A stretch of 64,000 nucleotides of DNA from Toxoplasma gondii ME49 (lineage: Eukaryota > Apicomplexa > Conoidasida > Eucoccidiorida > Sarcocystidae): positions 5,827,900-5,891,899 of the forward strand of contig NC_031476.1 of assembly GCF_000006565.2 (NCBI RefSeq), given 5' to 3'. Shown here one piece after another: positions 15,621 to 46,300 of this stretch (position 1 is the stretch's first letter; each line of letters starts with the position of its first letter). The notes beneath the pieces are model-generated. The model was not told the origin of the DNA. It saw nothing but the letters and a program-made list of their open reading frames with translations, and searched no databases. A program made the position numbers and the translations under genes.

Positions 15621-15658
<38 letters not shown>

Positions 15659-16532
15659 GTGTCTCCGGGCAACAGAAGACATGCTCGTTTTATTACAAGA
15701 TATGCAGTTTTTATCCATCCAGCCTCGAGAATATTTAAGGTTGAAAAAGCATCTCACCGCAGGACGCCACTTGACTTGAAAGCTCACGTCGTGCTCGACA
15801 AGGACCCACGCCCAGGAAAGACAGGCACCTTTGGGAACCTGGATAACGACAATGAAGGAACAATGAATTTGAGATGAGAAATGAAACACGACAGCAAAGC
15901 GATCTATCCCCGACACGCCCTCCGTACCAGGAATACGTGACGCAACGCACAAAATATGTGCTGGGACAGGCGAACGAGGCCCACACAAAAAAAGGAGGTA
16001 CAACGAAGGCTACATGCGGCTTCAAAGATGTAGGTGCATGCCTCTATGTGTCTGCCGGGCGTTCTGATAGAATCCATGCCGAGCACCAAGTAGGTGTCCG
16101 TCGACAAGACTGGGAAAAAGCGGGTCAGTAGCAAAATTCTGCTGCTCATCGCATGCAATCAATACCAACGGTGCTATTAGGCACATGCGTATCTGCAGCC
16201 GTCCTTCCCACGCCTCCTCTCGCCTATTTCCTTGTCTGTTATCCGTTTCTCGCTCGTCTCCGCACCTCGAAATCAACGTGCTCTCTCCGTCGCGCTCCGA
16301 TGTGAAGAATCGAGTGACCGCCTCCGAGGCGAGCCGACCTGAGAAGACCGAGGGGAGAAGCGAATCGAAGCTTTTACCCCACGCTCGATCTTCAACAGTT
16401 GACACGTTGGGTGGAACGGCTTTTCAAAGCTAAACACTCCCTTCTAACCGCCACAGATGCTTGAGTCACAGCGCCACACGATGGCACAAAAATTGGCAGA
16501 CGCAGATACATCGGTAGATACGCAAATGCATT

Positions 16533-16576
<44 letters not shown>

Positions 16577-23501: not shown

Positions 23502-26500
23502 ATGAGCTCCGGCATGAAACGATTCCTGTTCGGAAGCTTTATTCTTTGGGCAGGCCTCTGCGGGCTTGCAGCAATTGATGAGGCAGAGGCGCAGTGGGGA
23601 ATCTCACGAAATGGGCGTTGGGGAGCGCATCGGGCCTCTGGAGGGGGGGCCACGTTTTCCGCGTCCCGTGGAACCGGCGCCCCAAGCGTGGTGGCTGATA
23701 GTGGGACCTCGAGCTCGAGAGACCTTTCTCCACCAGTGGCACTACCTTCCTCAGCGGCAGCATCGGGAGGAACAACCTTCTCCCCCTATGCTGCCCGGGT
23801 GGCTGCTGCCGCGGGCCCAGGTCCCGTCACGCCGTTCGCTTCTCCTGCGAATTCTGCCACACCGCCTCCGTTGACGCAGTACTCACCTAGACAAGGACCA
23901 GTGACATATCCAACCACTTCGGAGCCTTTTCCTTCAACAAGAACATCGACAACCTTCAGTCCAGCATCTCCAGCCTGGGCTCCACGACCGGCCCAGGCGA
24001 ATACCTCAGGCAGTTCAGGGCTATCCAATTTCATTGAAGGTACGACACGTCCTGCTTGGAATCCGACGTCCGTGAGTCCGTCGCTGCCAGTTAATCGTGG
24101 CTCGGAGGCTTTCTTGAGTAGGCAACCTCAGAGTCTAACGAATTACTCGACACGTATAGCTCCAGCCAATGCATCGAGGTCAAATGGACCTGCCAGTGTC
24201 GCCTCCAGCGGTGACTCGAGCATACCAGCCTCACTTGGAACGTCTGACAGTCATGAGCTTCTCCCTGTAACGCGTCTTGACTTCACGGAGACACGGTTAA
24301 GCTCAACTCGAGGTATAAATGGAATGAATACCTGGGGAACTTCACCGGTGGCCGCTGCGAGCGATACCGGTGTGCCTTGGACTGGCATGTCGCTGTCAGA
24401 GAGAACCGACGAGAACTGGAGCACTGCAACGGCCGCAGGTCCAAGGACCTCGGTGCCAAATAGCATGAGTGGTGCCAGAACACAGTCACTGGTCGGCGGC
24501 GCAGCAGCAGTCAATTTTCGCAGTGAGGGCTTCCAACAGGCTTCATCCGACACTAACGTGTCCCGAAGCTGGACAACTAGCACTGCAGAAACATCAAACC
24601 CTGCTGGTCAAGAGGGCGGAGACTGGACCATGCGCTCCAGCAGAGCGGCTTGGAGCAACACGAATGAGAGTATTCCCACACAATCGCCTAACTCAAGTAG
24701 AGGTACCACTGGCCGTAATGTGTGGGCTTCTGCAAACGGAAGTGAAGGACAGGCAACTGCATATGAACTGTCGACACATACACCTTTCCGCAGTGGGGAC
24801 ACACCAAGCTGGACAAGCAGTACACCGGTACAAAGTGCATCTGACAACATAGAGCAGCGGCCATGGGAGACTACGGAATCAGCGGCATTTCCCTCCGCAA
24901 ACGCTAGCGAAGGAAGTCACAGGTCGGCAGACCATGGCTCCACCAGTTCAGTCAGGAACAGTGACGCAAACAGGCCGACAGAATCGTCATTTTATGCATC
25001 TAACGTACCACGAAACAACGCTTCTTCATGGGATGCCGCGACACCAGTTGGGAGGGCCACCGACGCATCAACCAGCGACTCGGATCGCTTGCCCGGGGCG
25101 GACACCAGCAACACGGCCTCACTTTTACCAAACACGAACTCAAGAAGAAACTATGGCCAACTGCCACCTTTGGATGGTCCATTGATGCAACCAATTCCAT
25201 TTTCCACAGGCAGTACTGGAAACCTCGACACCTCGGGTGGCTTCAGATCCGGCGATTCGAGTGTGTTTTCCAGTCGAGAAGAGACGGTCAATTCAAGAGA
25301 CTCTCGCATACATCAGCTTCCTTCGCCGGTCGATAGGCCGACTTACGTCTCCGACCACTCACCTCCTGCTACTCTGGGTTTACCCTTCGCCCTGCCGATG
25401 ACCGTCGAAAGTGGTACAGGATCGTTTCCTGGACAGTCGAGTTTGTCGGCGAACGCAACAGGAGCTCGTTACGACAGCTCAGTAGAGAGCCGAGGTACAG
25501 AGATAACTCCAGATTCGCCGCCTGCTGCTGCGTCTGTCTACCAACCTAGCAACGCTACGACGCCGGTTCCCAGTCATCGTTCCGGGTCTCAAGCAAGGGG
25601 TGCCGAAGCAAATGACGGCGAATTCTCATATTCTTTTTCCTCGCGGCAAGCAATGGTTGATCATATCGAGCCTTCTCAGGGCCTCCTACCCTTCAGCGGA
25701 AGTGAAGAAGAACGAGACACGATGAAACGTGAACCACAAGAGACGTTTCGCATGAACTACTGTGACGACGGATCCTCCCAGTGCGGGGAGAGGTCAGGGA
25801 TGATCCCCCCACCCACCGACCGAAACGTGACAACAGTACTGTCGGAACTCCCAGGCTCCACTTTTTTGAGATCCAATCCGATTTCACAAACAGATGATGA
25901 CGAAGTGGGGCTCCATAGAGTTGGGTACATTCCGCCTTCTGCCTTTAACGGAAATGAAACGGGTGCAGGTGGAAGTAGAGCAGAACCTGGAGGTCGGAAT
26001 TTCGGGCAGCAGCCGCGAGATCCAGGTGAACTCCTTTATGGAGGGTTGAACGACTACTTGAAAGACGCAGAAGATCCCTACGCTGGCTACCTAGGTGCTC
26101 TGTCTAGAGCGCCCTACCAGGAGAAATCCCCTGATGTGTCTGCTACGACGACCTCTCCTCCGTACACGTATCCAGCCACATACAATCCTTACAGTGACAA
26201 CATAGATGTCGATCAGATACCTGACAGCCCGTATCATAACTACGCGTACGCAGAGGACCCTTTTCCGAGTCCTTATAGCACTCATTCTCGTCTAGAGAAT
26301 TACGGGGCCGAGTTTAACAATAGGTATTACCATGAGCGTCGGATCGCCCCCAATATCTCGTGGGGAGACTATACGCAGAGAAAAAAGGCATTAGAAGAGG
26401 CTCGCAAACGAGAAGAGCAGCTGTTGCAAGAAGGGCGCATTGGAGTGCTGGAAGCCTCAGAAACGTCCTTCCAAGGCCTGATTGGGTATCCTTCAGGACC

Positions 26501-26519
26501 ACATCCGACCAACACGTAG
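23502..26519 (+). CDS. secreted Ser/Thr-rich protein with Trp-spaced repeats and Tyr-rich C-terminus
   Basis: One open frame of 1005 codons. Two in-frame ATGs at 23502 and 23514 precede a clear signal peptide (KRFLFGSFILWAGLCGLAA), so the protein enters the secretory pathway. Residues 40-640 are Ser, Thr, Pro, Ala and Asn-rich with many potential O-glycosylation sites. In this part single Trp residues recur about every 15-30 residues in contexts such as AWNPTS, NTWGTS, PWTGMS, NWSTAT, SWTTST, AWSNTN, VWASAN, SWTSST and PWETTE. Residues 845-940 are Tyr- and Pro-rich (YTYPATYNPYSD, HNYAYAEDPF). The last 60 residues form a basic/acidic helix. Cysteines are almost absent, which argues against SAG/SRS or MIC adhesive domains. 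A mucin-like surface, cyst-wall or oocyst-wall component is the best guess. I recognise no family. Confidence 0.85.
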   Translation: MSSGMKRFLFGSFILWAGLCGLAAIDEAEAQWGISRNGRWGAHRASGGGATFSASRGTGAPSVVADSGTSSSRDLSPPVALPSSAAASGGTTFSPYAARVAAAAGPGPVTPFASPANSATPPPLTQYSPRQGPVTYPTTSEPFPSTRTSTTFSPASPAWAPRPAQANTSGSSGLSNFIEGTTRPAWNPTSVSPSLPVNRGSEAFLSRQPQSLTNYSTRIAPANASRSNGPASVASSGDSSIPASLGTSDSHELLPVTRLDFTETRLSSTRGINGMNTWGTSPVAAASDTGVPWTGMSLSERTDENWSTATAAGPRTSVPNSMSGARTQSLVGGAAAVNFRSEGFQQASSDTNVSRSWTTSTAETSNPAGQEGGDWTMRSSRAAWSNTNESIPTQSPNSSRGTTGRNVWASANGSEGQATAYELSTHTPFRSGDTPSWTSSTPVQSASDNIEQRPWETTESAAFPSANASEGSHRSADHGSTSSVRNSDANRPTESSFYASNVPRNNASSWDAATPVGRATDASTSDSDRLPGADTSNTASLLPNTNSRRNYGQLPPLDGPLMQPIPFSTGSTGNLDTSGGFRSGDSSVFSSREETVNSRDSRIHQLPSPVDRPTYVSDHSPPATLGLPFALPMTVESGTGSFPGQSSLSANATGARYDSSVESRGTEITPDSPPAAASVYQPSNATTPVPSHRSGSQARGAEANDGEFSYSFSSRQAMVDHIEPSQGLLPFSGSEEERDTMKREPQETFRMNYCDDGSSQCGERSGMIPPPTDRNVTTVLSELPGSTFLRSNPISQTDDDEVGLHRVGYIPPSAFNGNETGAGGSRAEPGGRNFGQQPRDPGELLYGGLNDYLKDAEDPYAGYLGALSRAPYQEKSPDVSATTTSPPYTYPATYNPYSDNIDVDQIPDSPYHNYAYAEDPFPSPYSTHSRLENYGAEFNNRYYHERRIAPNISWGDYTQRKKALEEARKREEQLLQEGRIGVLEASETSFQGLIGYPSGPHPTNT

Positions 26520-27664
26520 TGGACGCGTGAGGCTAAGAAACGAATTCTTGTGTCCTCCAACGCCATGAGCAACAGGTCATCATTATTCCAATGTTGTATG
26601 CACCTTTGAAGCAGCTGCACACCTCGAGCAGCCGGCAATGATCGTGTTTATCGGTACTCTCTCCACTGTTGTTTTGTGAAGTTTAGCATTTCCTTCACAA
26701 CCAATGAAGTGTCAAAATTCAGCACTGTCCCTTCATGCGACAAAACATCTATGTCGTTATGAAGCGGTCACTGTGTTTCAAAGACACCGTCTGCTACTCA
26801 GTGTATGAGCTGGACATGGTTTGGGTTTGTGCTGGGATGCTGTAGCGCTGCCTGAAGTGTCACACAGGAGTCAGCCGTGGGTTGCTAAAAGTTGCTCTTG
26901 TGCAGCACGTTGACGCTCCACCCGCACCATACTGCACCCCAGATCGCTGTTGCTGGCCATTCATGTAATAATGGCATTCACGACAGAGGTGATTTCAACC
27001 TCTCACTGGTAGATTTTGAATTCGCTCAGACAGCAAACGTCCCATGCCTTCACCATTTACGAGTGGCTGCCTAGTTATACGTTAGGGAACGATTCACAAC
27101 CAGTTCACCTTGCTACGAAAAAGAAATCGACATTACGTCAACTGTTGATGTTCGACTCAATACTGTGAGCATAGCTCGTTTCCGAGTGAATCAGACTGTC
27201 ACTCAGCGTCCCTTAGAGGCCACTTTATACGGACAAACTCCTGTGCCCGATGCCCTCTCCATCCGCGTTCGCCTTTCACGTATTAAAACACCTTGATTGC
27301 TCGGCCGCCTTTAACTTCTTTTTGAGTAGATCCTGTCAGCATAAGCTTCTCTCGTGTCAGGTCCTGCGCAAACGCTGGAACACGTACTTATAAGTTAGCT
27401 GACAGGGCAACGCTACCGTCAGCTCCGTGGCGAGTATCATTTATATAGCCAAAGAACTGATAACGTCGGAGCAAATGAATGTGACGGTGCATGTCCCTGC
27501 TGGAATTTGTGATATGTTTCAGGCATTCCAATCGCCTCCCAGACATCATTTTGCAACACGGCCTCGTCTGGAATACGACGGGTGCTTGTTGCTTTCTGTA
27601 TCGTTATCTCACCATCGCGAGAGGCACAAGTTCTTGCCTGCTTAGTTTTTCGATGATTGAGTCT
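26520..27664. other. convergent intergenic region
   Basis: This region is shared by the 3' ends of the secreted-protein gene (+) and the kinesin-like gene (-). No supported exon was seen. Confidence 0.4.
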
Positions 27665-30600
27665 TCATCGTTCTGAAAGCTCACTTTGCGTTTTGCAGGG
27701 AATATGGCATGCACACCATCGCGCTTCCGCCGATGAAGCATGTTTCTTGGCGCTCGCTATCTCAAATATGGGCCGAGCCTTCTGCCCATCCCGGCCCACA
27801 CTTGGCTGCTCCGCACTTTTGGTTCGTGAGTCTCCAGGAATGAGAAGTCTTTGGAAGTAGTAAAAAATATGATCTTTGTGGTGCAACGGAAAATTGGGTC
27901 TTTTCTGCATCTATGGCTGTACGCCACGCTCGCTACCGTTGGCTCGAGGATTGTGTCCTTACATTCAGGGACCGAAGTTTGTTGACCCGTTCAAACAGCT
28001 CTCGGGCTTCGCACACGAAGGAGCTCCGCACAGAAAGCCTGCCGAAAGATATTCATTTTGTTGAACTCGAGTGACAAGCGGGCTATAATCGCAACACGAG
28101 AGAACTGAGCTAAGCCGTTTAGGAGTGTTGTTCGTGTCTCAAGGTGTACGCACTGCGCAGGAGCAGCGCGCACGGCATACTACTGTCTGTGGGTGCAAAC
28201 CATACCGCGTATCATTGGTATCTGATCCTGAATCACTTGACTCTTCTAAAGCTTGCTGGTGGCATCGAAAACTGAACATGCGTAGGCAGCTGGATCTGGA
28301 TCTCGATGTATAAAAGCTTACGCAAGCATTCGAGATGGTCGCGCTTGTTGATGCACTGCTGAGTTGAGCGTATTCTTCCTTGCGGAATGTTAAACCTTCG
28401 AGTGTTATCCTGGAGAGGCCGGATGAACAATAGAAAGTCCAAATCATGTTACGTGGAAAACGGCGTCTTTCATTGCTATTTGAAGAAGAATTAAGTACAA
28501 CTACGTTGACGTAGGCTCCCTTGCAGGGTCATCATGAAGCGGCCTTGTTCACAATCATGGATGGTTTTGGCTAGGTCTTGACAAACAGAAGCAAGTATTT
28601 CTATTCCATCCGTGTCCTGCTTAATCCCGCGGCTTCCATGATCTAACAGTGATACGGCTTTGGCCTTTAACATGTTGAGGAGCGACTCTTGGTCACCGAG
28701 CTTTTCAATGACCTCCCTTCTGAATCATTAACACAAGAACATATACCTTCCAGCAGTCTAGAAAGAACTTGTTATACTGAAATAATATTTCAATGTCAGG
28801 CGCTGCTTCAGAGATGCTGACTGTTCCTGTCAGATTAGTATATGTACACTCACTTGGCTGCTAAAATATCGGTGTTGTACTGTTTATTTATTCTTTGTTC
28901 GGCTTTCGTGAATGCCTCGTAATCGGTCTGCAGGTCACATTTCATTTGTTCGTGCACCCTGGAGTGACAGCAGCAGCCAAGAATTGTGGAGATGCGTCGT
29001 CAAACAGTGGTCAGCAAGGCGCCTTCCTGAACGATCCCCATTTCAATAACCAGACATGTTCCGCGCAAAGTTGTACATTCGTATCGGGATTTCTGCGGGG
29101 AAATGGGCAAGTCATTAAAAACATCATTGTTGCAGGCGGGTTTCGCACCACCAGATGAGTGCATGTACCCACTACTGGCACCAGAAAAACAAACTTCCGA
29201 TGACGCGGTCGGCTGCCACCAGAGCAACATGGACCCTTAGAATGTTCTTAATTGGGGATTCCCAATCTTACGTACTTGTGGAATGCTTCTTCCCGTTTTT
29301 TCATTGTATCATACGTCTGTCGAATCTTTGCACCTAGCTCTTGCACCGTGCTGAGTTGAAACAGACACAACCTATGGCGAAAATGTGTTCCAGATATACC
29401 AACTATCACCTCGAATCAACAAGCGCGTCCATAGCGCTTCTGGTAAGAACGGGACACCACCTCAGCGTTTCGAATAATTGTCACCGTTGGGCCACCAGCA
29501 GCTTGAAGCGTGGATCACGGCCGAATTCTCCAAGGAATCGTCGTCAGAGAACGTATGAAATAATAGAACACAACACGACCCTCTCGATGTGTTTCTCGCC
29601 ACTACTGCTAAGGCTTTCTATCACTGAGACTTCGGACGCACGCAAGCGGGATTCCGGGCCATCGTACTCAGACGGTTACACCTGTGTGTAAAGGTAATAA
29701 GTCTGCAGCTCAGGGGACACTTCGGGTGCAAAATGTAGGTGTGATGAAGGGCTTGTGCTTGCGCGCACCAGTGCGCTGTTTGAACAACATTCGCAGATAA
29801 ATCAGATGCATCGTTGAAGCATTCCTCCAGTAGATCTTCCCTCCTGCGGAATATTTCCTTTAGTCGTCCTCTCAAGGCCTCAATGTGCGATGCTCTAACG
29901 GTGATGGTAGTCGATATCGTACTTTCCTGCATACACAACATTTACGTACAAGAAGTACTTATTTCCAACTTCCCTCACACAACGCGAATGTAGCACCACT
30001 GAGTCTGCAGTTGCAGTTACCTGGTATACGCTGCGGCGTGAAGTAGGACTCCCGGCACATCGTTTGTTTCACGATAGCCAGTCACGGGACATTCCTTCTT
30101 CAAATCCGCAAATGGTCTGCCGCACAGTGAGGCACCCAAAGTGTGCGTACCGTACCCAGTGTTTCTTCTTCAACGCCAGATCGGTGTGGGATCAGACTGT
30201 CGCGGTGACATTGTGCCGCCTCGAGCCGATCTGAATTAAGGTACATGATCACGTGAAAGTGGTTAATCAGCGACGTCGCCGAAGCTGCCAAAACAGAAAC
30301 GTCCGCCGCTCAGCCCGCCGTCTTCAGCCAGTGGTAATTGGGAATTGTTCACTTACCATTCGCTGCCTGAACTTTCAGTTCATCGAGCTGCAGGTGCTTC
30401 CGGCACAAATCCTTGCACGTCGTCTCTATTTTGTCAACCAGGCTGTGCATCAAGTCCCCCTGCAAAGGAGGAACAACCTTTGTCATGCAGCTATTCATTG
30501 CCAGCGCGACACGGCCAGAGCTTCTCCTACGGGCCGACCCATGGAACCCAAGTGGTGGAAAAAGATGGGGCAAATTGACGTTTTATTGTCAGTGAAACGG

Positions 30601-33600
30601 ATTCCGGATATCAACAGGACGCACGTTCCAGGCGTTCCGTCGCAGTACCGACCGGCTTTCCCTATCTTTACAGAGCATCTGAACGGCATAAACAAGACTT
30701 CCCGCGACAGAACGAGTACCACGTGCCGGCCGCGGATGCCATTAGCGACTGTTTGGTGGTCGTAAACACAGCCCATCTTGCAAAACGTGTTTAGACACAC
30801 AGTGTAGTCTCATGGAGAGAGAACAGGTATCAAGCATTGCGTGAAGGTCAATCGGCTGGTATGCAGAGCCAGAGTCACCTGAGCAGCTTTCGGTTTCGGT
30901 CGTCGAAGCTGATTCACAGGGCAGAACGTTCCTGGAGCAACTGGGAACGTCTTGCTCTCTCCAAAATATCCCATCGACCCTCTTCGTCTATGCTCCGATG
31001 TATCCGAGCTGATGCCTGTATCGTTGGCCTCCAGCATCCCCGACAGTGTAAGGCAGCGTCTCGAGGCGCATTTGGCAGCGAACTCAATCCATGCAGCAGG
31101 CTCCTGTATTGTACGCAGGCGACGCTTCACTGTCGCCTGACTGAGCCTTGTGCGCTTTCTCTACTACGGAGACGGCAGACGTAGTTTGTTCTTTCAAATG
31201 AGGAAGGGCTACACTTCGAAGCTGTAACACAGGATTTGTTTTTCTGGGAGAGCTTTGATTCAACTAAAACCACTGCTGAACAAGGGGCGTGTTGCCTCCC
31301 ATGTATCCAGCGTATGTTCGGGCGTTATCAGCGTCACTCTCTCAACTTCACCTGGGCTACGATATGCCTTGTATCCGACTGTTTACGCTCAGGTACGTGT
31401 GCTATTCTGATGTGCTTGCAGGAGCAAGTGTCCTAGCAATTCGTCCATGCACATCGACAAAAAGTTGCCCCGATTGTCCGGCATTTGACTAAGAAGTAGG
31501 GTGCCATTTTGTGCATAACAGGGTCGCCGTTCTGTACTAGCACAGACAACGTAACCACAAAAATGCTGTGTGACTGCGGTCTTACCGAGTAGTCTTTCGC
31601 AGTCGGATTGATGCATACTAAGAGACTTGTCGAGGAATTGTTCGCGAGACTATTCTGAGTGCAGTTTTGAGCGTTTAACAGGAAAACGAAGCCAGAGAAC
31701 CCTTTCCTGAGCCAATGCAGTGCGGCTGGAAACGGATGAGGGGGCGCATCAGAGCACGCTGCCTTGATCTGAACGGCCAAGAGAGTTGCGAGGTCTGAGT
31801 TTTGCCAGTGGTGTTTAGGTGTATTATCGCAATGACGAGCCATCGTTATCGTCTTGGTATTTGAGTGTTGATGGCGGTCATGTCAAACTTAGGCACTCTG
31901 GTACTGGCGTCTGTCCAACAGTTGCTATTTTATGTTAAAATTCCTGGGAATGACACTGTCCCCGCGGGCACTCACACAATCCTTGTTATTTCAAACCAGG
32001 CGACCGTTTTGTCCCGACACCATTTGACGCATGATGCGCAGACTGAAATGATACAAAACGTGTGCTACCTCGTCGCTAAAGAGAACCAGCATAATATTGT
32101 GAAATAAACAACACACAATGTTATCGAAAGCATCAGGAGAATGTATGTTTGTCGCGTCGATTCAGAGAGAAACTGCAGCCTGTCTGGCTTCTCAGTGTTG
32201 TTGACGTGATCCAGAGTCACCAACCCATGTAATTCATCGTAGATTCTGCCCTAGAGGATACGCTTTAGCTTGACGTTTTGAAGGTGCTCCCACGGCGACT
32301 GGTTTCGCGATGCCCCTAGTTCAGAACCTGCTGCAACACTGAGCATTGCCTGCCCGAGTGATGCTGTTGGCGACGTTGGTTCTTCGAGCGATAGTCTTCT
32401 AAAGCGTTTTCCGCTTTCAGGACAGCCAACATAGTCACAACTGCTAAGCTCAACTACCGTCAAGCAGCCACCGATGCAGGTTGTATCAGCTGCAGGTCTG
32501 TGAAGGGCAGTCAAATCCTTGTACGACCAAATGCCCATTGTTGCTGACAATCCTATTGCATCTTGCAACAAACCATCTGTCCGTGCATGGTAGGGCTTAC
32601 GTAGGCGGCGGCTTAATCTGGTACAGGGAGAACATCAGGTGGGATTTTGCAGAACGAAGCATGTATCGCTGGCTCTCGGCGGTTCTTGACGCCACGACTG
32701 TTTTTATTAGCGCTATAACCTAAGCGCAACAGAAGGCACTAGTCATGCTGGACATTTTGATAACTGGGAAGACCAGGCAAGCAAGAGCGAGCCTAACCGT
32801 CACACGGTCTCCAGTCTTGTTTTTACCATTGGCTTGACTTCGGTGCCATCCTGCGCAATATTCTCAATAAAGGGACGACTGCACCGATCTGACTGTATAA
32901 TGCAGGGAAAAGTATATGAAACATCGTATTTGGCTAGCACCACATGACTCCTTTCGCGTCACGCATACTGACGAAGGCCGTTTTACCACGTATACGCAGC
33001 AATAGTGACGGAGGGCAGCTGGTGTGTTATCTACACAGGCGGCACAAGATGTTATGTGGGATCGCAATTCAGCCTGTGCTTTATACTACCAATACTGCCT
33101 CACAACAAACATCCCATCGTTCGTCGTGCACTCAGGCCGCATATACTGAGTGATCACAGTTGGACGATCGAAAAACGCCAATTGTAGAAGCCACTCGCCC
33201 ACCGTTGTCGTCTCCTTGTCATACGCTCGGAGTGAAAATTCGTTTGGGAACCCACCTCTTCTGCCGGTGACAGAAGAACAGGAAGTACACCTTCAACATG
33301 TGTCTGACAGGAAGAGGAACCATAGTAGACGTTTTGAGTTTCCACAGCTCTCCAGAGCATTCCTCCTACGGAGTCTTGCCCGCAATGACATTACCCCATT
33401 CAATTACCCGACGCCTAAGTAAGGATGCTGCTTTTGACACGGACACCCCACTCCCTCAGTCCTGGCTTACATATTCTCGTGCCGCATCATGCTTAACGGC
33501 AGCCTTTGCCGGACTTGAGACGCCTTTATCCGTAGGTCCTTGGTGTTCTGAAAGAAGGACGAGGAAGGTATTTACGACTAACACCTTCATTTCCAGAGCA

Positions 33601-36600
33601 ACACTTCAGCCCATCGCGTTTTTTCCTGTCCTGGTCAAAGTGTTGCTGGTTGTCTCACGATGGGGTCGATAGTGTTTTCTGTAATGCCTTGTCAAATCGT
33701 GAACTTGATTGTCGGAGACCTCCACGAATGTCGCCATCGGCTTATCTGTATCCTGGATCAAATGAACAAAACACATGGTTGCCACACTGTACTGAATGCC
33801 CGTGTTAGACGAATCCCGCGATAGTCTCGACACGCACTATACTGGTACCATACATCGTCAAAACGCCGAATAGTGTCGAGCGTGGAGGATCCACCTGGGG
33901 CCAGGCTGCTTGAACATTCTCACTTTCACATCGCCTGGCTCTGTACAATCAACGTTCACACCGTCTCCAGACACCTTCTTTCTTTTGGAGGCCATGGCTG
34001 TCCAGATAGTATACGTGCTACGAAGCTCCTCCATTTTCGAAAAATGGGGGCAACCGATACATGTGAGTAAAAAAGGGGCACAATATAGGGAGATGTATGT
34101 AGTTAAATTAGAAGCCACGAGGCATTTCGCGATGCAGTGAGTTACCCGAGGCATCTGTTTCAGCGTCGATTTTCTGAATAAGTCGTAGACAGCCAAAATA
34201 AGAACGCCATCATCGGAATCAGGCCCTCCACTTCCAAAAATTGAGGATGTCTTGCCGCCCCGGCTAGGACGGATTGCGAACAGTGTCGCGGTCTCTCCAG
34301 CTGTGTAATAATAGTGGACAGAAGCAGGACATAACGACAGACATTATACCACACTTGCTCACATCACCGAGGCTGTTCCTGATTACAACACTCAGGCGAT
34401 CTGCTAACAAATTATTTTGACCCCTCTGCAACGTAGGTGTCAGGGTGCCCCTCTAAAACGATGCGGATGTCCTGTTTCTATGTTGAGGGGGACGTCGAGA
34501 CGACCGCAGAATTTTTGTGTAACTTTTCCCTTTACAGACCGACAGGCGTTGACGTCTTGGTCACCTCAGTCGCCGATCAACAGTTGGTCTCTGCATTCTC
34601 TTCTTACCATCCCAGAACTGTACGCACGGTTTAGGAGTGTTTTTGCGGGAGTCTCAATTAGCCATATTCATAGTATGGGACAGGTCAATATGAAGTTACG
34701 GTGCGCAGGGAGCCTCCCCCTGTCTCGAGCAACCAAGAATTTGTTCGGCACCGCATTGCCAAGAGTAAGTCGAACAAATCTAAAGAGCTCTTGCCCTGTT
34801 CTGCCGCCTCAAAAAACTAACCTACGACTCGGTCCACCAACGGAGCGCCACGTTCTCGGAATACTTCCTGTTTAGAAGCTTCAGGAGGAAATACTCTGTC
34901 GACACTACACATACAAAACTCCCACATGCAGAACATTCGATTGTTTATGAGTGCAGAACGAGCTTCGGAGGACACACCGTGCTATAAGAACCAAGCACAT
35001 TGCACACCGGGGGACAAAGCTAGTACTTCATAAATCCCAGCAGGGAAATAGGCAGGTGCTACGCATATACAGGTATTGTCGTTCTCAGTGTGGCTGTTTA
35101 GATCCTTGCATTAGGTTCACCTGTATGCAGCTCACGACGATTTGCTTAGGAAACGCGCTTCTGCTTCAGTGCAAGGTGCTCCCAGTAGTGTCATATTGTA
35201 TACAGAACGGCAGACTGGAAATTGTTTCTGTGTTAATGACGCACACATGATGCGTCGGTCTACTGGTAGCCGACGTGCACGGGGATATAGGCTGTTTGTA
35301 CACGAGTGGTATGGAGCGTCCTGGATGAGCTAACAACTGTTACGTAGCACGAGCCACATGTTAGTTAACTTCGTCCTTCGTAGAGCGTGTCCGTCACTCT
35401 TCCGACGCTATGATGCGAACAGCCGTTCCGAAATTGTCGACGCTTAAAATACTGGACGACACGGTGTTTCGGCTGAGACAGCCTACGCAGAAAACCTCGA
35501 AGCCTGGCAGACATCCGTTTCTACATGAATGTGTGGCGGGCGATAAGACCACGGCGCGGTGTGCAGATACTCCATGTTTGGATAATGAACCTATGTGTCA
35601 AACTCACATATATGGTTGGTCGACATTCGGCGGATTCGGTTCCGCGAGCCAAAGAACTGTCCACTCCGCAGGGTCGACAGTGTAGCACTGCGCCAGTAGT
35701 GAGGGCACATTGGTTGCTCCCCGCAAGCGAATTCCGACTTGAACGAGGTGTTAAAGCGACAAATAGCAGATTTTTCCGGCTGATTCATCAGGAACCGCTG
35801 TACAATAGTCGTCGAGGTCATGGACTTCTACGTATCGCTTATTTCTTGCGTGTCTTCCAAGTGAACGGTAAAGTAACGGATCAAGACACAACGTTGTTCA
35901 CCGGCGCCGACATGGGTTCGGTATTGTTTTCACCGATTCCACGTCCATCCGAAGAAGGCGGCTTTATTTGGGCTGTTTCGGCGCTCTCCAGGTATCGCAT
36001 TGGTGATGAACTCCATCAGTCTACCACTGCTCCGGTATCACACCTCTACGTATGACTTAAAGGTTCTGAGGCAATTCACGTCCTGCGTCTTTCTTAATAG
36101 TACAATATGTTCGCTGCTGAATCCAGAGTTTCTCAGTGAATTCACATGCTTAACAGACCCCTTTGCGGGCGAGATCGGCTTCTTCCTGGTTCGGCTGTCT
36201 TTTGCATGTCGCATCTTCAGCCACTGTGTCGGCGAGTCTGCAGGGGTGTCCCGATTGCGGCCCTCCATCGACCTTGGATTCGTCGATGATACAGCAACGT
36301 TTGTCAGATGTTCTATGGCAGGCTGTTTCTGCCTTCTGGTGTGACAAATCAGACAATCACTTGTGCCCATCAGGCAAAGGTGCCCTGACGGTGGAACAGA
36401 ATCACAACCAGACGCTGAGCCGCAGGTACCCTCGTAAGACGAGCGATGGCACGACACGTCCAATAATATTTGTCTGACAATGCGTACTGGGCAACCCAGC
36501 CCCTCTAATTTGTTGTAGCATTTGGTGTGAGATAGATCCCGGCAGTTTTCATCGTCATAAAGGTATTAATATACCACATATAGACAACTACGATCAACAG

Positions 36601-37901
36601 AACACCTACCAATTATTGAAGTCACTAACCAACAGCTAACCTGTGTAGCCTACGGGATTCCGTCGTGTCTCACCTGCATCTGGTTCTGGGGTGGACCGTC
36701 CACTTGCAGGGCAGGAAATGTCTAGAGACGCAACCGCGGTTTTGCCTTTTCGCTTCGTTCTTGCTGTTTCTGTCGTGTTATATTCGGGAATTGCATAATC
36801 GATTGTATGAAACGTCGATTCGTACACCAGTAAGTGGCGTTTGCTTGCTGAGCAACACGATAGAGCAGAGGACATAATCCATCATCGTTATTTCTACGAG
36901 AGCTCACGTGACGAAGTCACCCGAATAGTTTATCCCGACAAGTTACGAAAGATTAACTTACTCCCCCTAGTCGAGAATCGGATTTGTGTGTCGGTAAATT
37001 AACACGCCAACCGACTGTGGCCGCGTTATCAAGCGATTCTGCTTGTAGCTGCTTTCTGGTGTTCCTGACGAAAATTTTAGGACCCGGGGGCTCTTACATC
37101 TGTTCGGTACTGCAGCGCGCATGTCCTTGGATCGCCAAGAAGCTGAGTACACTTTCATACTTCCATCACAAATCTAGGATTGGGGAGAAAATCATCCACC
37201 ACTGTCTTCACAACGCACCGGCACCACGTTCGACACTTCCGCCTGTCAGCACTTAATCTCTAAATAATGTTTAGAATCAATTTATATACCAATATTTGCT
37301 CAATGTAACACCGGTTCTGGCCTGCGACTGCTAACCGCTGTGCCAGCACAATTTTCAGCAGCCAGTGGGGCCCGGCACGCTTCAGAATTCTTAAACGAAA
37401 AGAAGACGTTAAGATGACAAGAAAATCCAGAAAGCATTCAACTACCCCACCGTTCGTCAAAATGTGGAACCAGGTGGCGTGATACTGCTGTTGAGCATAT
37501 CTCATAATCTAGATGAATAAAAGAGAATTTATGGTTGCTCCAACTGAGCCACGTGCGCATTACGTAGTTACCACCTAGAGATTAAGAACCCAAGAGACCT
37601 ACGTACTAAATGCCGCTTTAACTCAGAAAGCTGGCCCGACCAAAACGAGCCACAGAGAGTTCTCGAATGCGTTCGCTGTCCAAGAGTTGGCAGATAAAAA
37701 TGTGTGTTTTCCTGGCGAGCCACGGAAGTGTGGTTTTATGAAGAGATGTATCTCTCCTTTTCTTCTTTTGTACGTGGGCAACTGAGCAGAAAGAAGCTCC
37801 TCTTCGTCTCGTTCAAACAAAGCCCCGCGTTTATATTGTCTCCGTGCTCTACTTTCAGCACGCAAAAGAACGTCCGTGAGTCTGCTAGTGAAACCCGCCA
37901 T
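27665..37901 (-). CDS. highly divergent kinesin-like protein with C-terminal coiled coil
   Basis: Exons, high to low: 37901-37774, 37389-37310, 37142-37098, 36847-36674, 36473-36430, 36335-36159, 35985-35934, 35503-35407, 34779-34700, 34300-34146, 34028-33924, 33752-33659, 33365-33291, 33260-33166, 32892-32827, 32517-32262, 31794-31586, 31136-30879, 30459-30357, 30284-30151, 29926-29682, 29350-29276, 28719-28511, 28395-28322, 28255-28206, 28038-27963 and 27904-27665. All phases agree (1131 residues). The start is AAAATGGCG. Kinesin landmarks appear in order: EVFCVGCLSRN (RVRPL position), TLFAIRPSRGGKTSSIFG (P-loop), DDGVLILAVYDLF, FVEVSDNQVHDL (EIYNExVYDLL), SGFYNWRFSI (SSRSHAVFTI), CLTVVELSSCD (LxLVDLAGSE), ASLGQAMLSVA (NKSLxALGxVI), NVKLKHLATLL and NSLANNSSTSLLVCINP (SLGGNSKTxMIVxISP). 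Residues about 750-980 look coiled-coil. Weakest joins: exons 7, 15/16 and 23/24. It is probably cytoskeletal; motor activity is doubtful. Confidence 0.72.
28453..28475 (-). other. candidate micro-exon in the kinesin-like gene
   Basis: A 23-base segment has a very good acceptor (TTAATTCTTCTTCAAATAG) and a CAC|GTAACA donor. It enters in phase 1, matching the preceding exon, and leaves in phase 0. In the reading used here it is skipped, because including it puts the next exon (acceptor at 28410) in a frame that cannot continue. Confidence 0.25.
29011..29092 (-). other. candidate alternative last exon of the kinesin-like gene
   Basis: The acceptor TTTAATGACTTGCCCATTTCCCCGCAG is the best in this part of the gene. 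Its phase matches the exon ending at 29276. It would add 26 residues and then stop (TGA at 29013-29011), cutting off the tail encoded from 28719 to 27665. Skipping it also keeps phase and continues the coiled coil, so both products are possible. Confidence 0.35.
33471..33547 (-). other. candidate frame-shifting cassette exon in the kinesin-like gene
   Basis: A 77-base segment has a strong acceptor (TTCCTCGTCCTTCTTTCAG) and a strong donor (TAT|GTAAGC). Phase 1 entry matches the preceding exon (33752-33659), but exit is in phase 0 and the next exon is open only in phase 1. Inclusion would therefore break the frame inside the motor domain. Confidence 0.3.
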
Positions 37902-40337
37902 TTTATGAATGTAAAACGACGCCTTTTGTACGTTTAAAACCTTTATACTGAGACAAGGTCAGGTTCCACGTTTTTTGACAGAACCATGATTAAATATCCA
38001 TTCCGATATTCGGTATCGAAACACGCGATCTGTATCTGATGAGTTGTCGTGCAAACCGCCTGAACTTTTTCGGTAGCAGCTCTCCACGACTACACCGAAG
38101 AGACTGAAACGATTTTACACCACAAGGCCAAATAGTCTGCAGCAGTCAGAGTGAGGTTCACTCGACAGTCCGGTCTAGAAAACTCTGCTGTCGTAGGGTA
38201 GAGTGGCGCTGGCAGCAGTTTGCAGCAGTAACCACTGGAAGGAACGGTTTTTTGAGCCTTGTGCGGCAATGATACTGCAATGTTTGTACTGTCACACCCC
38301 CATTAGAGGGGTCGCCTCATCGCCCCTGTGCTTCTAGAGTGTGTAATGTCCATTTTTTTAATTGGTGCGTGGGACCTCCGCATCTCTGTGTACCAAAGTG
38401 GCAAGAAGTGCTCTTGCTTCGGTTGACGCCAGTCGGCGAATCGTGCTGCCTCCACGGAGATGCCCCGGCCTCCAGCATGGAGACAGACAAAAACACGGTT
38501 TTACCCCGTTTTCTCCTATGTTCTTAGACCTGAAATCGATTCACGAAGCAGTTTTTGATTGATTCATTTCCTTGTGATTGAAGCACCAGGAGCCGTCTAC
38601 AGACGTTCCACGTAGAAACCGTGCTGAACAGTATTTGGGCAAAAACGTTTGACCAACATCTTGCTCATTTTTTACGGTTTCCAAGTGGGCAGTTAATCTT
38701 TCGTTTCAGGAATGTAACTGAGACTAGACTACGGGATGATACCAAAAGAACCTCGAGTTCCAATGGGCTCTCCGTAAAACAGGGTGACCCGGGCGTTGTG
38801 CCGTTTACGGTACCATATTGCGCTTTTACCTTCTTTCTCATTTTGTTGGCATATGCTCAGGTAGTGCTTTTGGGTCTAAACAAATAAAGCACAGATTGTT
38901 TCCTCCAGCCACCATTTGCTTCGGTTTATTGTCACTGGCTCAAAGCTTAACCTGTTCTATATGTACAACGTTCAGCAAGTGTCCGTCGAACGGCCTACGT
39001 CAAAAAAGGCGAAAACGCGTTTTTTGTTACCTTTGCCTCCAAAAAACAGTGTACGCAATTCTTCGTTCCAGCGGTAGACCACCAAAGGTTTCGCTCGGCG
39101 CCGGGTGGAGGATCGTGGTGTTGTCTGCTGTCTCCGGTCCGCCAGTCTATCGACAAGTTGGATGTGCAACTGTCTCCGTTGCACTGTGCTACGCCCGTCT
39201 CCTATTAACCGGGCGACTCAGGTCGACTGTCCTGCTATGACCTGTGCTGTTCAGTTCCTTTTTTCAGCCCACCCCAATCGTGCGTCCTGCAACAGAGGAG
39301 TTGTCGTCTGTTCACACAAAGCATTGTCTGCGCGTCGATTCCGCCCTGCCACCCTTTTTTTGGCCCGTACACTCGGTTGGTGAATGACGCAACACAAGAA
39401 CGGTTAATAGAACACTTTCTTCTCTCATCTGAGAAAAGTGGCTCCTGAGAACAAATGGGTTGGCAGTCAAAACATCTGCCGCCACCTGTGAATTCCATGG
39501 ACGGAGCTCAAAGCGCAGTTCTTTGGATTCCATATTTTTAATAATTTGTTGTTCGTCTCGCTGGTCTATCGTTCTGTATGTAATAAGTTCGCATACTTTT
39601 TGGTTCGTGCCCGATTGGTTGCCCCTGCCCACGGCGTCACCCTTTGCCAAAAATTTCCTGCAAGTTTTCACTGCATACAAGGACAAGACAGCCCCTCCGA
39701 GAGCTGGTTTGTCATTTGATGGCTTTTTGACTACAGTGACTATCGTTATTACACCAGTGCCATCGTCTCGCGTCCCTTTTTCGTATTTTGCTTGTTACAA
39801 ACTTTTACAGCTATCCCCCGACAGTACTCTTCTTTTCTTGCATTCAACGGCATAATACAATTTCGGGGAAGCAAGGATAGCGTCACACAAAAACGGGATT
39901 ACAGTCGCTCGCGATAGGACGTCTTCCTCCCTGTCTGTACCAACGGTACAGACCTCCAGAGCACGCGAGCAGACCCGGGGGAGAAGCGTCGGTCGAGTCG
40001 AGTTTCCGAGACTGCCATCGCCTTACAGATGTCCTAAAAATGCCTGTGACGAAGGGCAGGAACGAAAATGTGATTTTCATCATTTCTTTCGCGGAGTCCA
40101 GTGTTGGGTCGGATGCTCACGCCCCAAAGCGTTAGAGCCATCATCTACGCCTTCAAATTCGTTGTTGAACAGGAAGGCATATTCGGCGTCTGATCAGGTT
40201 CGAAGCGCTTGCCCAGCCGCAGGGCCTCCCTGATTAGTAATCCGCCATAACATAAGATTGGTTCGCGACTTTCTTCACCAGCCTCTCAGCAGTCTGCTTC
40301 GTCATCCAAGTATCCACCTATCCCCCACTGCGTCAGC
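37902..40337. promoter_or_regulatory. divergent upstream region of the kinesin-like and giant-protein genes
   Basis: 2.4 kb lie between two ATGs on opposite strands: 37901 (-), context AAAATGGCG, and 40338 (+), context CAGCATGTCG. No exon with convincing splice pairs was found. Both promoters and leaders should lie here. Confidence 0.45.
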
Positions 40338-43300
40338 ATGTCGCGATCTCGAGTTCTACACTCGGGTGCCTCGCCCGGTGCCTCTGAAGGCAGCGGTGTA
40401 GCTAAAACGTTCGGCGTTCATGACCAGCATGCATTTGATCTTCTATATCAGCTCCACACGAGCGGTCTCAAACTTTGTGTTGAGTGGCGAAACGCGCCAC
40501 CTCAGGAATTGCGTACGAATTCTTCTCTCCTTCAGTCCAGTTCTGAGTCTTCCGACCCTCAGTCCTCTTCTCAATCACCACCTTTCTCTTCTTTCCCGTC
40601 ATCCGACACTACGAGTACTCCGTGCACTTCAGGACCGAAGGCAGATAACGCACCAACAGCCCAAATCGTATCGTCGCCTCACCCCCAGTATGCTGCAATG
40701 TCGAAACGCTCTTCAGGCGGAGACGACGAAGGACAAGAGGGATTCGAGGCACTTGATGCAGTGCTGTGCATCCCGTTGAAAAATGGTTCAGAGGCAGCTC
40801 GATTGCTTGTGAGGCGATCTGACAACGGTAGCCTGTCTGAGCCGTTTAGTTCAACCATCGAATTTACACTTAATCGACAGAGTGTCATATTCCTTCCCTC
40901 CCACCAGTCACATAAGAATGATCCATCCCCCTGTTTAGAAGACCCCAGTCAGGAATGCATCGTGCCGTCACAAGAACAAGACGTAATAACACGCGTCGAA
41001 CAAGCAAAAAGGACTCTATCGCCGATACCGGTATCTACCCACGGATGTGAGAAGGGCGTTGACAATTCAACGCAGATGAAGGACGAGACGGCAACATTAA
41101 CGCCCTTTTCAGCTCCCTCGCACCGTTCGTGCCCATCCCACATCACCTTAGCAACAGGCTGCAAAGCTCCTGGTCGTCCTGAAGGAATACACAGCCCTTG
41201 TGGAGGCTCTTCCTCCTTCCCAGACCGCCAGGCTCGTAGCACCTCTCCTCAGCAACCGCCTCTCATCGAGTCACGTCCTGCGACCACCGTGTCCCCGGCC
41301 TCGGGAGCACCTGCCCGTGTCCATTCCGTATCTCATGCGGGTCCTGGAGAAGCCGGCCCTTCGGTCTATTCGTTGCCATCTGGTACCAGGTTCTCGTCGT
41401 CTTCTGTGAAAGTTGCGTCTCTCTTATCTGGCACGTCGCAGCTCGTTCCCACTTCTGTACCAGGTGGCCAATGCCGTGAACCTGTCCTGCTCAAAGGACC
41501 CGGTGGCATCGAGATTATGATACGCTGTCGGTGCTTCAAGCCACAGGCTTCTTCCTTTTCCACGGGATCACACAATGGCCCAGACGCTAGGACTAATTGC
41601 CGACCACACCTCCCGTGTACGGTAGTCTATGAAGCCTTGAGGATTCTTCAGTTCTACGGCTTCCAACAATGCGCACTTCTGTCATCTCTGATACCTCCAT
41701 CTTCTTATTCGAAGGGATGTGGCGGCCTCGAGCAGGTCCTGCTCAAACTCAATTTGCAGGTGCTCCGTGCTGAGACTCCTGCGTCGTCGGATGCGATTGT
41801 GTCATCTGAGGCACCAAAAGAAGCGCGAACTGCAGCGATACATCCAGTCGTTTCTAAAAAAAAAGAGGTGCCAGCGCCTGACAGTCAAATGTCGTCAGCC
41901 TGTGCAAAAAGTGAAGAGGACGGGAAGCAGACGGCTGCCACGCAAAACGCGGAGGCGGAGGGACTGCCTGCAGATGATATCTGCTCAGAGTTGTGTGGAC
42001 ACTCGGAAAAGGAGTGCGGCCTTGCGCCCAGGCCGATCCCAGGTGCCTGCTTGAGTTTGGCCTCAAAGCGAGACCTGTCGGAGTGTGGAAAAGATGACCT
42101 TAGGGATGGGATGGACGCGCAACAACTAAAGCCGGACGTGCAGGAAAGCGAGAAAACACAGGTCGGAATTAGTGGTGCGTTTGGCAGAATGCTCCAATCT
42201 TTAGGCTACCCGCAAGGCTCAGCCGACCTAACCATGGTGTACCTCGCCGCAGCAGGAATCTTGGTGAGTGGTTTGTTTATGCAGATCAGGAGCCTCGGGA
42301 TAGCGTATTCGATGTGTGAAATCAATATTTCTCGTCGTTGAAGTGTGACGGTTTGTATTTGCTCCGAGGAAGCTGTTCGCCCCCGCCGGTGCTTTGTGAC
42401 TGTTCTGAGTAGGTCGGTTATTGAGCAAGCATGCTTCACACTCACTATGTAATCAGCATTTTACTCCTGTATCACCTTTCTCCTGTGACTACCTTTACCT
42501 TGGTCAGCCATGGCAGAAGAACGAGACGAGCCGTTGCACTGACGGGAAGAAATGCCCTGACAATTACCGGCATCGTGTAGACAGGAAACGTGCTGTATGA
42601 GTGAAGGCCTAAGAGTATTAAGGAGCGTATTCTCCAGTGGTAGCTGCACAAAGCTTTCATCACTGTGCGCGCCTTAAGGCAGTGACCGCGATAGCCATTA
42701 AAGGATCTGTTGATTCAGCTTCGTATGCGTCCATTGATTGATTTCCTTTTCGTGTGCAGGGCCCCAAAGCAGATGGACCTATCAGTGGAAATGAAGCTTG
42801 TCTTCCCGCTTCATCCGACTCGGATCAACACAAGGTTTTGACGCATGCCGCAAACCCGCCTGTGTCGTCCAATGGAGGCACAAACAAGTATACCTGTCCG
42901 CATTCGGCACCTGCGATACAAGGAAGCGATCAGGGTAAATTGAAGCCGCTGGTGTCTTCGAATGCTAAGCTACCGCACGTTTTACCTAGTTCGGCACAAA
43001 TGTCTTCCCCAATTCAATCGTTACATGCAAATCCACTTCGATCCAATGCTCATCAGGCTTCCTATCAGAGCGGAGACCTGAACAATCTATGGCCGCCTGT
43101 CGATAGCAGCGAAGTGACGACAGCTTCGATGGTCGACTCAGGCCCAACGGCGTCAAGTGACAGCTGTATACCACCTAAAGGCACAAGCGAAAGAGCAAGT
43201 CCGAGCATACCTGGGGGATCAGAAGTCTCTCACACCTCTCCCAATGATTCGGACCACGCATCTCGCTATCGCCTTGCCGCCGTCGCGGCCGCGGCTCTTG

Positions 43301-46300
43301 CAGCGGCAGTGGCCCGCAAGCAACGGCGGGAGGCGTCCGATTGCCAGGCAGCCGAGACAGGGCAGCATGCGTTTTGTGTTGCTTCTCAACAACGGAGCGT
43401 GGAGGAGCGCGTCTATCAGCAGAACCAAGTGACGCGCTTCCCTCCTGGAAAGCGTGTTCTAGGTGGCCGACCTCAGGAAAAAAAAGCAGAGCAGAAAAGC
43501 CAACGAGGAAGCGACAGCAGGTCGAACCCTTTGCTTCAGTGTTGGCTTCTTAAGGGCCACGAGAAGGCATCCTTTCCGTCTTCAGGTCATCCCTCTCAGG
43601 GCCATACAATGCTCGGAGGGAGCCAAAGAAGCCCAGAGGGAGCAGGAACCCCAGAGGTATTCAAGTGTCAAAACGGCGAAGACAGGGGACAGTCTTTTTC
43701 GACTGATCAAATGGAGGGTCAGGCGACCACGCAAAGCCGACGCATTCAACAGTGCCACACCGAGCAACCCCCGTTTGTGTCCGGAAGGGATAAGCGTCTC
43801 CTGAAGCAGCAAGAAAGCCAGGAGGAGTGGAGCTCGTCGACTTCTTGGGTCAATAGACGGTTCGGTGGTGGTCGTCGAATACCGCGAATGGTAACCGTTT
43901 CTGAAGAAGAAAACCAAAGTCCTGTGGCCTCCGACGTTGTCCGCAGCGGACCGCAGTGTGCCGGGCATCCCATTGAACGAAACGAATTAGAAACATTCAA
44001 GGAAAAGATGCTAACTGCAAGAAGCGAAAAGAGGTGAGACAACGACGAATGGTTTCCGCACTCAACTTACTCGGTTCCACAGATGGAGAGTAATCGCTGC
44101 AAATGAAACTCCCGTTGTGCTTTGATGCATACAACAGCAGTTCCGTTCAGCAGAGCGCTTCAGCAGAGTTCCTTTTGAGACTCCTAGCAATGTTCTGCTC
44201 GTTGTTCGTGTCGTCACCTTCATCTACTGGAACGCCCTTCTCCATAGACGTCTCTTGTGGATCCAGAGAGAATCATAAGCAAATCTCAGTAATGTTGTTT
44301 GTGGTTGTCCCAGCTCAGACAATCGTTTGTTGACTTTTTTAGTTTGGTCTCTGCAGGCATGCCCTACTCCACTCTCTTTGCCCGTTGCCTTATGACGTTT
44401 TTGACTGTTATTTCCTTTGCCTTCCGTAAACCAGCGCTGTGTTTCATTAATGGGCTCTTCACTCGACAAGGCCCCCACCTCGGCATCCGCAGTTTCTTTT
44501 TCGGATGCACTCGTGCGGTCTTCTCTGGAACGTACCGCTTTGTCTGTGGAAACTGCGAAAGTTAAACACTCTTTGTTCGCCGTTCATGCAGCTTGAACAT
44601 TTTTTTCTACGTACTCCCCACATCCTGAGGTTTCACAAATGCCTTTCTGCAGTCAACAGTTGTACTGTTCTGGTGTTGCGATTGTCGCATTCCGCTTCAT
44701 TTGTCTTCCTGCAGCCCAATAGCAGGCGGTGACGGGACTACGGTGAAAACCCCTCTATTTTCCATGAATGAGCGACAGGTTCAGCACACTAAAGGACTGC
44801 AGTCTGCGTCTGGCTATGAGCCATGTGATTTTCCCGATAATCTTCGTCATCTGCCTGATCCGCTTTCCAAGGCCTACGGTCGGCAAATCGAAAAGGAACG
44901 TTCCGGCTCCCAGCGTGTGACGGACAGTCCGAATGCTTCAGCCCTTTATGAGCCACACGCCACCTTCCTGCGATGTCGACAGGCACTTGAAAAAATACTC
45001 GAACAACATAGAACGCTTAATCAGCTGCCTGGTGTAAGGCACGGTGCACGGGTCCCGCCTTCCATCCACCGGAACGCATCCTCAGCGCAAATGGATCTAA
45101 CAGATACCATAGGTTCATCTCTCGTGGGTGGAGGATCCATGGACGTTAGCAGCCTCCCTCTGCCTGGAAAGCAGTTGCAAGTCATGGCGGGAGTTTTTGG
45201 CGAAGAGTCATTGCAGGGCTATATTCGGGCAATTTCCCTTCTCCTTGACCCAAGACTAAACACGTCAGAAGGTGCTGTACAACTGTTCTCGCGACTCATT
45301 GCTGACAACCAGACTTCCGATGAGGAAGACGAGCAAGAGACGCCAGTTGTTTCGAGCACGCATCTCGCTGCTCCACCGTCATCACCTGTAAGCAATGAAC
45401 AGGCGCGAAATAACAGCGGCGGCGAACCAAAGACTTCTGCGGAGCTCCCCACTCTCCAAAGGGTTGTAGGGGGCTTCGGACGTAAACCGGAGAAGAAGGA
45501 GTCCGTCGTGCAAGCGTCGAAAACCGAACAAGATTTCCAGCGCTCTGGTTCAGGGGAAATGCCAACTTCGTCTGCATCGGCAGCTGCCACCGCAGCGGCG
45601 GTAGCGGCACTGCTATCTTGGAAAAAAGCTCAAAGTTTACGCCGCATCTCCCCTGATTGCGATGGAAGTGAGAAAAAGAACCAATTTTTCGAGTCGTATG
45701 CAGCGCACACGCAGGAGCTGCTCTCTCGACAACGGCAGCAGGGACGAGACAAAGTAGGGGAGGCCGTTAGCTTCACGAATGCTTGCAAACAGCCTGTCTT
45801 ACGTCACACTAAGCAAGAGAAGAACTTGCCACAGAGTGCGTTACCAAGAGGTGTTCTGCTTGATGCCGCTCGGGTGCTTCTAGCCACATCCGCGCAGCAC
45901 TCTAACAATGGAGGGGAGGCGCTCCCACTGCACCAGGCCCTCGTGCACCTCTTGCTCCCCAAGGGTAACGATCGAGACGGAAAGAAAAAAGATAATGAGG
46001 ATATGTTAGATCGCCTGACTCATCTTCATGAAACGCATAGACAAGGTAAGGCGGCTGAGCCTTCACTAGATACGCCACGAGGCGCAGTACGGTGGCAACT
46101 AGTGTCAATGCTTCTTGGAATGTGTCTGGTCAGCCACGGCATACGTGCACAACCCTATAAATTTGCCCTGGTCCTTTCTCCTTCCGTTCCCTTTCATTTC
46201 TCGTCTTCATACGCAACACAGAAATTCCCGTCCTTCACTTGCCGCGCCGCTTCGATGCATCATTTCGTGTTTGACTCCAAATGTGTCGTGAAGCTAACTG

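What the first reader, a model, noticed from the sequence alone, without database searches (positions are those of the whole stretch)
27665..37901. A pseudo-kinesin-like gene hidden in 27 short exons
No single open frame here looks like a known protein. When exons are chained by phase, kinesin landmarks appear in the correct order over about 400 residues, then a coiled coil. Most of the invariant nucleotide-binding and switch residues are changed. This could be a kinesin-derived structural or regulatory protein that no longer hydrolyses ATP, perhaps bound to the parasite's specialised microtubules. The landmarks are seen in the sequence, the kinesin comparison is established knowledge, and the loss of motor activity is inference.
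Basis: partly seen in the sequence, partly recalled or inferred. Interest (0 to 1): 0.8.

Follow-up and report, generated by a model that had tools for sequence, protein, structure and literature searches.

The report
Hidden, degenerate kinesin-like gene in Toxoplasma
A stretch of Toxoplasma DNA without a matching protein in the database searched holds the exons of a very divergent relative of kinesin, the microtubule motor, whose fuel-using parts are largely altered, so it is either a motor turned into a non-moving part or a dying gene.

Summary
Chained minus-strand exons at 34904-29769 encode a kinesin motor homology domain: PF00225 84.7 bits, E 7.6e-24. Spliced-profile scores are 46 and 66 bits, against at most 14 and 29 in control DNA and 14 and 17 in shuffles. 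The part up to switch I carries this (71.8 bits alone); the last third is weak (E 0.042). The 27 exons, gene ends and coiled coil are not confirmed. The P-loop reads RPSRGGKT (GKT kept), switch I SAKSH, the likely switch II ELSSCD. No second copy was found, it could not be placed among 21 motors, and no annotated protein of 117-2480 aa with these exons was found in a set that holds its Toxoplasma and Hammondia neighbour. No stop or frameshift breaks the matched blocks. Best reading: an unannotated pseudo-motor of the KIF26/Vik1 type. Main rival: a recently dead gene (some weak splice sites; expression not testable here). Loss of ATPase and microtubule binding are inference.

The parts
34822..34904 (-). 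motor exon A1, VDRVFPPEASKQEVFRERGAPLVDRVV; its 5' end (weak acceptor, 0.1 bits) is uncertain
34146..34300 (-). motor exon A2 with P-loop: GETATLFAIRPSRGGKTSSIFGS..DLFRKSTLKQMPR (GQTGSGKT -> RPSRGGKT)
33659..33752 (-). motor exon A3, DTDKPMATFVEVSDNQVHDLTRHYRKHYRPH
33471..33547 (-). uncertain small exon in a variable loop (acceptor 8.5 bits; donor -5.4 at 33521 or -1.0 at 33470)
33256..33303 (-). motor exon, THVEGVLPVLLSPAEE
32601..32719 (-). motor exon A4 with switch I: VIALIKTVVASRTAESQRYMLRSAKSHLMFSLYQIKPPP (NxxSSRSH -> MLRSAKSH)
32275..32497 (-). probable exon A5 with beta7 and switch II: ...GGCLTVVELSSCDYVGC... (DLAGSE -> ELSSCD); 3' end uncertain (32275 or 32294)
   Evidence: adds almost nothing to the Pfam score
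31586..31654 (-). probable exon A6, NSLANNSSTSLLVCINPTAKDYS; 5' end uncertain (31654 or 31768)
   Evidence: E 0.042
29769..29926 (-). probable exon A7, ESTISTTITVRASHIEALRGRLKEIFRRREDLL...; the 1.66-kb intron before it may hide further exons
29276..29350 (-). tentative tail exon, TVQELGAKIRQTYDTMKKREEAFH
   Evidence: phase-consistent splice chain in an anchor-forced model
28854..28958 (-). tentative tail exon, VHEQMKCDLQTDYEAFTKAEQRINKQYNTDILAA
   Evidence: anchor-forced; acceptor 4.5, donor 4.8 bits
28491..28719 (-). tentative tail exon, REVIEKLGDQESLLNMLKAKAVSLL..., ending in a stop in the 14-exon models
   Evidence: anchor-forced
36044..36384 (-). tentative exon before the motor (acceptor 5.4, donor at 36043 2.4 bits); EHIVLLRKTQ is a candidate first strand
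   Evidence: inference
   Evidence: the start was imposed, not independently supported

Best explanation
A multi-exon gene of Toxoplasma gondii, with no second copy found and absent from the annotated proteins searched, descends from a kinesin. Its head keeps a clear kinesin signature through switch I, but the ATP-sensing motifs have diverged: the P-loop lost GQTG and kept GKT, switch I reads SAKSH, switch II probably reads ELSSCD. Most likely it is made at low level or in a poorly sampled stage and works as a non-catalytic head: a fixed docking or scaffold domain on tubulin or on a partner kinesin, in the manner of KIF26 or Vik1/Cik1. Shown: the homology, the intact frame in the matched blocks, the P-loop and switch I changes. 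Inferred: that it is expressed, that it does not hydrolyse ATP, and what it binds.
For: PF00225 E 7.6e-24; spliced-profile scores far above control strands and shuffles; the 60 PDB sequences shown of 155 at E <= 10 are all kinesins, best E 1.1e-14; no in-frame stop in 161 codons of the better-supported half or 318 codons of nine exons, where neutral drift of 0.16 or 0.08 changes per site would leave a 5% chance of that; an aligner allowed cheap stops and frameshifts used none in matched blocks; changed motifs; of 15 matches in the own genome, 8 are this locus and the other 7 are 25-42% identical, so it is not a recent copy of another kinesin; unannotated in the sets searched.
Against: Several splice sites are weak compared with introns from 12 fetched kinesin loci. 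GC3 is 0.46, below all 11 Toxoplasma kinesins compared (0.50-0.70). Conserved residues are lost as often outside the catalytic motifs as inside (25 of 60 kept against 6 of 19, Fisher p 0.59), so nothing points to selective loss of catalysis. The tree branch is 9.7 changes per column. The last third is not significant alone. No expression evidence; absence from annotation also fits a dead gene. Open frame and GT/AG joins are partly built into the aligner.
Confidence: 0.5

Rival explanations
1. A kinesin gene that has died recently: it diverged for long under relaxed but frame-keeping selection and is now not expressed, so the exon chain is a relic.
For: Weak splice sites, low GC3, uniform loss of conserved residues, very long branch, no annotated protein found, no convincing donor at the loop after HYRPH.
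Against: No stop or frameshift in the matched blocks; the eight joins of the motor chain are GT-AG and in phase, though the aligner allows no other; the many motif changes cannot all postdate a recent death (arithmetic).
Confidence: 0.33
2. A very divergent but still catalytic kinesin: GKT is kept, Lys and Asp could replace the switch I Arg / switch II Glu salt bridge (recalled), and wrong exon ends make the last third look worse than it is.
For: GKT kept; S..SH kept in switch I; the switch II exon adds no score, so the true exon may have been missed.
Against: GQTG and the second switch I serine are lost in well-supported exons; even the very divergent Toxoplasma kinesin at L011 keeps GQTGSGKT, SSRSH and DLAGCE.
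Confidence: 0.12
3. Chance: enough short exons can be chained in any 10 kb to mimic a kinesin.
For: Profile chaining at low intron cost does overfit the last third; the last-third score lies within controls.
Against: 46.3 bits against at most 14.4 in 47 control strands and 13.9 in 100 shuffles; N-half Pfam E 6.8e-20.
Confidence: 0.02

Closest known systems
KIF26A/KIF26B (kinesin-11), vertebrates
   Same: Kinesin head lacking the IFAYGQT and DLAGSE motifs; Kif26b binds microtubules without ATPase-based motility (PMC3387196, abstract line and passages seen). Here LFAIRPS and probably ELSSCD.
   Different: No sequence comparison with KIF26 was made; the present head keeps GKT; microtubule binding untested.
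Vik1/Cik1 motor homology domains (partners of kinesin-14 Kar3), yeast
   Same: Motor homology domain that binds microtubules but lacks the parts needed to bind and hydrolyse ATP, acting as a foothold (PMC4338441, abstract and passages seen).
   Different: No direct comparison made; here sequence homology to the motor is clear and no partner is known.
Smy1 (budding yeast, kinesin-11)
   Same: Deviant catalytic pocket and microtubule-binding sites, thought not to move on microtubules (as stated in PMC3387196).
   Different: No direct comparison made.
pseudoKinesin-21, an orphan group of fungal kinesins
   Same: A named group outside the classical kinesin families (PMC5076506, passages seen).
   Different: Fungal; no sequence compared; the passage does not describe its motifs.
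Apicomplexan kinesin-X3 and -X4; Toxoplasma KinesinA
   Same: Divergent or apicomplexan-enriched kinesins on pellicle, axoneme or apical polar ring (PMC9333250 and PMC13387612, passages seen).
   Different: No link to this locus was found; their sequences were not compared here by name.

Membership tests
Kinesin superfamily (PF00225, sequence homology) | Profile match above Pfam's cut-off (29.3 bits) over the motor | tested here: met
   84.7 bits over positions 46-320 of 327 for the joined exons; depends on exon joins, controlled; last third weak
Kinesin superfamily (PF00225, sequence homology) | First strand with RxRP (recalled motif) | tested here: inconclusive
   No supported exon for positions 1-45; EHIVLLRKTQ at 36384-36044 is only a candidate
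Catalytic kinesin motor | P-loop GQTxxGK[ST] | tested here: not met
   RPSRGGKT; GKT kept, GQT lost; the motif as given in PMC5076506
Catalytic kinesin motor | Switch I NxxSSRSH (recalled motif) | tested here: not met
   MLRSAKSH
Catalytic kinesin motor | Switch II DxxGxE | tested here: inconclusive
   ELSSCD at the aligned place, but that exon adds no profile score
Pseudo-motor kinesin (KIF26/Vik1/Smy1 kind) | Kinesin-type head without ATPase activity | not testable with these tools
Pseudo-motor kinesin (KIF26/Vik1/Smy1 kind) | Expressed, intact protein | tested here: inconclusive
   Frame intact in matched blocks; no RNA or protein data; no annotated protein found
Any of the kinesin families sampled | Groups with that family in a tree | tested here: inconclusive
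   22-row tree: target unplaced, branch 9.7, long-branch warning; only some families were in the sample

The most novel reading that the evidence does not exclude
Coccidia carry a functional pseudo-kinesin, missed by annotation because its exons are tiny and each too divergent to match alone, that serves as a fixed structural or regulatory head on a stage-specific microtubule array such as the microgamete axoneme, the conoid or the subpellicular microtubules.
Probability: 0.25. Interest if true: 0.7.

Novelty: new member of a known kind. Interest (0 to 1): 0.5.

Why it matters
It shows that a kinesin-like gene can sit unseen in a well-studied parasite genome because exon-by-exon searches fail, so kinesin inventories of Apicomplexa may be incomplete. 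If expressed, it would be a further case of a motor turned into a non-moving part, in a group with unusual tubulin structures.

Tried and rejected
Single-exon Pfam searches fail. A Markov coding model from 75 long open frames discriminated poorly (0.09-0.17 nats per codon on the eight longest training frames; motor exons -7.2 to +4.3 bits), so exon structure outside the kinesin match could not be settled with it. Profile chaining at low intron cost overfits after switch I; those extensions were dropped. Phylogenetic placement failed. A simple heptad score for a coiled coil was reached by 705, 424 and 305 of 2000 shuffles for three segments, so the coiled coil is not claimed. Concentration of residue loss in the catalytic motifs was tested and not supported (p 0.59). 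Rfam: 0 matches in the window at gathering scores. Literature: locus tags near the neighbour gave 0 papers; the bare number gave 13 papers, 12 listed, none of them about this gene by title; no listed title is about this locus, but those are capped listings, not read papers. In one search inserts carry no stop penalty in my script: the target path has one stop, inside a loop insert, and one of ten true kinesin loci (L004) has three; frameshifts were used in none of them. In the other spliced searches stops are forbidden.

Full report
Where it is. The window is C10:5827900-5891899 of a 65.3-Mb genome in 1959 contigs. A piece of the open frame at 49713-53861 is 99% identical to a Toxoplasma gondii protein of 2385 aa and 89% to Hammondia hammondi HHA_269350, so the genome is taken as Toxoplasma gondii; that it is strain ME49, chromosome VIII, is my recollection of chromosome lengths. 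The locus lies on the minus strand, between the plus-strand open frames 40251-53861 on one side and 23502-26519 on the other.

Is the kinesin signal real? PF00225 on the whole genome, without regard to introns, gives 60 matches at E <= 1e-3 and none in the window. I wrote a spliced profile aligner (codons, GT-AG introns in three phases) with a profile from 13 kinesin motors. The minus strand of 27400-38200 scores 46.3 bits and the plus strand 8.7. Of 48 other real strands (20 loci and 4 window tiles, both strands), 47 score at most 14.4 and the true kinesin locus L011 scores 96.1; 100 dinucleotide-preserving shuffles reach at most 13.9. With a 20-sequence profile and splice weights learned from 40 introns of 12 Toxoplasma kinesin loci, the target scores 66.2 and its plus strand 13.0, against at most 28.7 in 38 control strands and 16.7 in 100 shuffles. 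The joined motor gives PF00225 at 84.7 bits, E 7.6e-24, and PF16796 at 29.7 bits, just over its cut-off of 27. Against PDB sequences the first hit is a kinesin-8 (7z2a) at E 1.1e-14, and the 60 sequences shown of 155 are all kinesins. In the 5.8-billion-protein set it finds kinesins at E 0.024 and, with a longer query, at 3.8e-9 and 7.4e-5.

How far does it reach? The part up to switch I carries the signal: 71.8 bits, E 6.8e-20 alone; the rest alone gives 13.3 bits, E 0.042, over 35 residues of the A6-A7 part. A half-profile search of the last third gives 16.3 bits, within the control range (mean 9.2, SD 2.6, max 17.2 of 76 control pieces; 100 shuffles, max 10.7). That part is therefore probable from its position and phase, not proven. 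One join is unsatisfactory: between HYRPH and THVEG an extra small exon with a poor donor is needed. Positions 1-45 of the motor were not found with support. Tail exons at 29350-29276, 28958-28854 and 28719-28491 chain in phase, but a simple heptad score does not exceed composition shuffles.

Motifs. P-loop GQTGSGKT reads RPSRGGKT; switch I NxxSSRSH reads MLRSAKSH; switch II DLAGSE aligns with ELSSCD, in a stretch that adds no score. Of 79 columns at least 75% identical among the kinesins with a letter there (14 or more of 20), 31 are kept: 6 of 19 in the three motifs and 25 of 60 elsewhere (p 0.59; motif columns counted by hand). The head is therefore diverged throughout, not only in its catalytic centre. 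The roles of these residues are established knowledge that I recall, with GQTxxGK(S/T) and DxxGxE also stated in PMC5076506 (passages); loss of ATP hydrolysis is inference.

Gene or relic? For a gene: no in-frame stop in 161 codons of the better-supported half or 318 codons of nine exons. Neutral drift of 0.16 or 0.08 changes per site, respectively, would leave only a 5% chance of that, and such drift could not explain 48 changed or missing conserved positions of 79. This argument is weakened because exon ends were chosen partly to stay open. An aligner allowed stops at 3 to 6 bits and frameshifts at 6 to 10 bits used none in matched blocks; its single stop lies in an unpenalised loop insert. 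In the own genome, 15 matches at E <= 1: 8 in this locus, 6 at kinesin loci and one other (C8:2949990, E 0.15, one stop), those seven at 25-42% identity; so this is not a young dead copy. For a relic: weak splice sites at several joins, GC3 of 0.46 against 0.50-0.70 in 11 Toxoplasma kinesins, a branch of 9.7 changes per column, and no annotated protein found.

Annotation. Three protein searches covered lengths 352-1120, 779-2480 and 117-371 aa. None returned a Toxoplasma or Hammondia protein with these exons, although one search returned both for the neighbour. Only the candidates sharing most words were scored; longer or shorter proteins were not covered. Genome-browser annotation and RNA data could not be consulted.

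What it works like. The nearest working models are non-catalytic kinesin heads: Kif26b, which lacks IFAYGQT and DLAGSE and binds microtubules without ATPase-based motility (PMC3387196, passages), and Vik1/Cik1, whose heads act as a foothold for Kar3 (PMC4338441, abstract and passages). Membership in a kinesin family could not be shown with the sample used. I put a functional pseudo-motor at 0.5, a recent relic at 0.33, a still active motor at 0.12 and chance at 0.02.

Noticed in passing
23502-26519 (+): Single open frame of 1005 aa with a signal-peptide-like start and a Ser/Thr/Pro-rich body (by eye); no Pfam match at E <= 1.
   Followed up: partly
40251-53861 (+): Series of long open frames; a piece of the last (49713-53861) matches T. 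gondii (2385 aa, uncharacterised) and Hammondia hammondi HHA_269350 (2299 aa, hypothetical) proteins. Four of these frames had no Pfam match at E <= 0.01; the last was not tested.
   Followed up: partly
about 4190-4714, 13529-14041, 15497-16009, 16395-17046: Open frames containing IYIYIY runs, which suggests alternating T/A repeats in the DNA.
   Followed up: no
L011 (C10:5330000-5339999): Another very divergent but motif-intact kinesin (GQTGSGKT, SSRSH, DLAGCE), 96.1 bits, tree branch 5.27.
   Followed up: no
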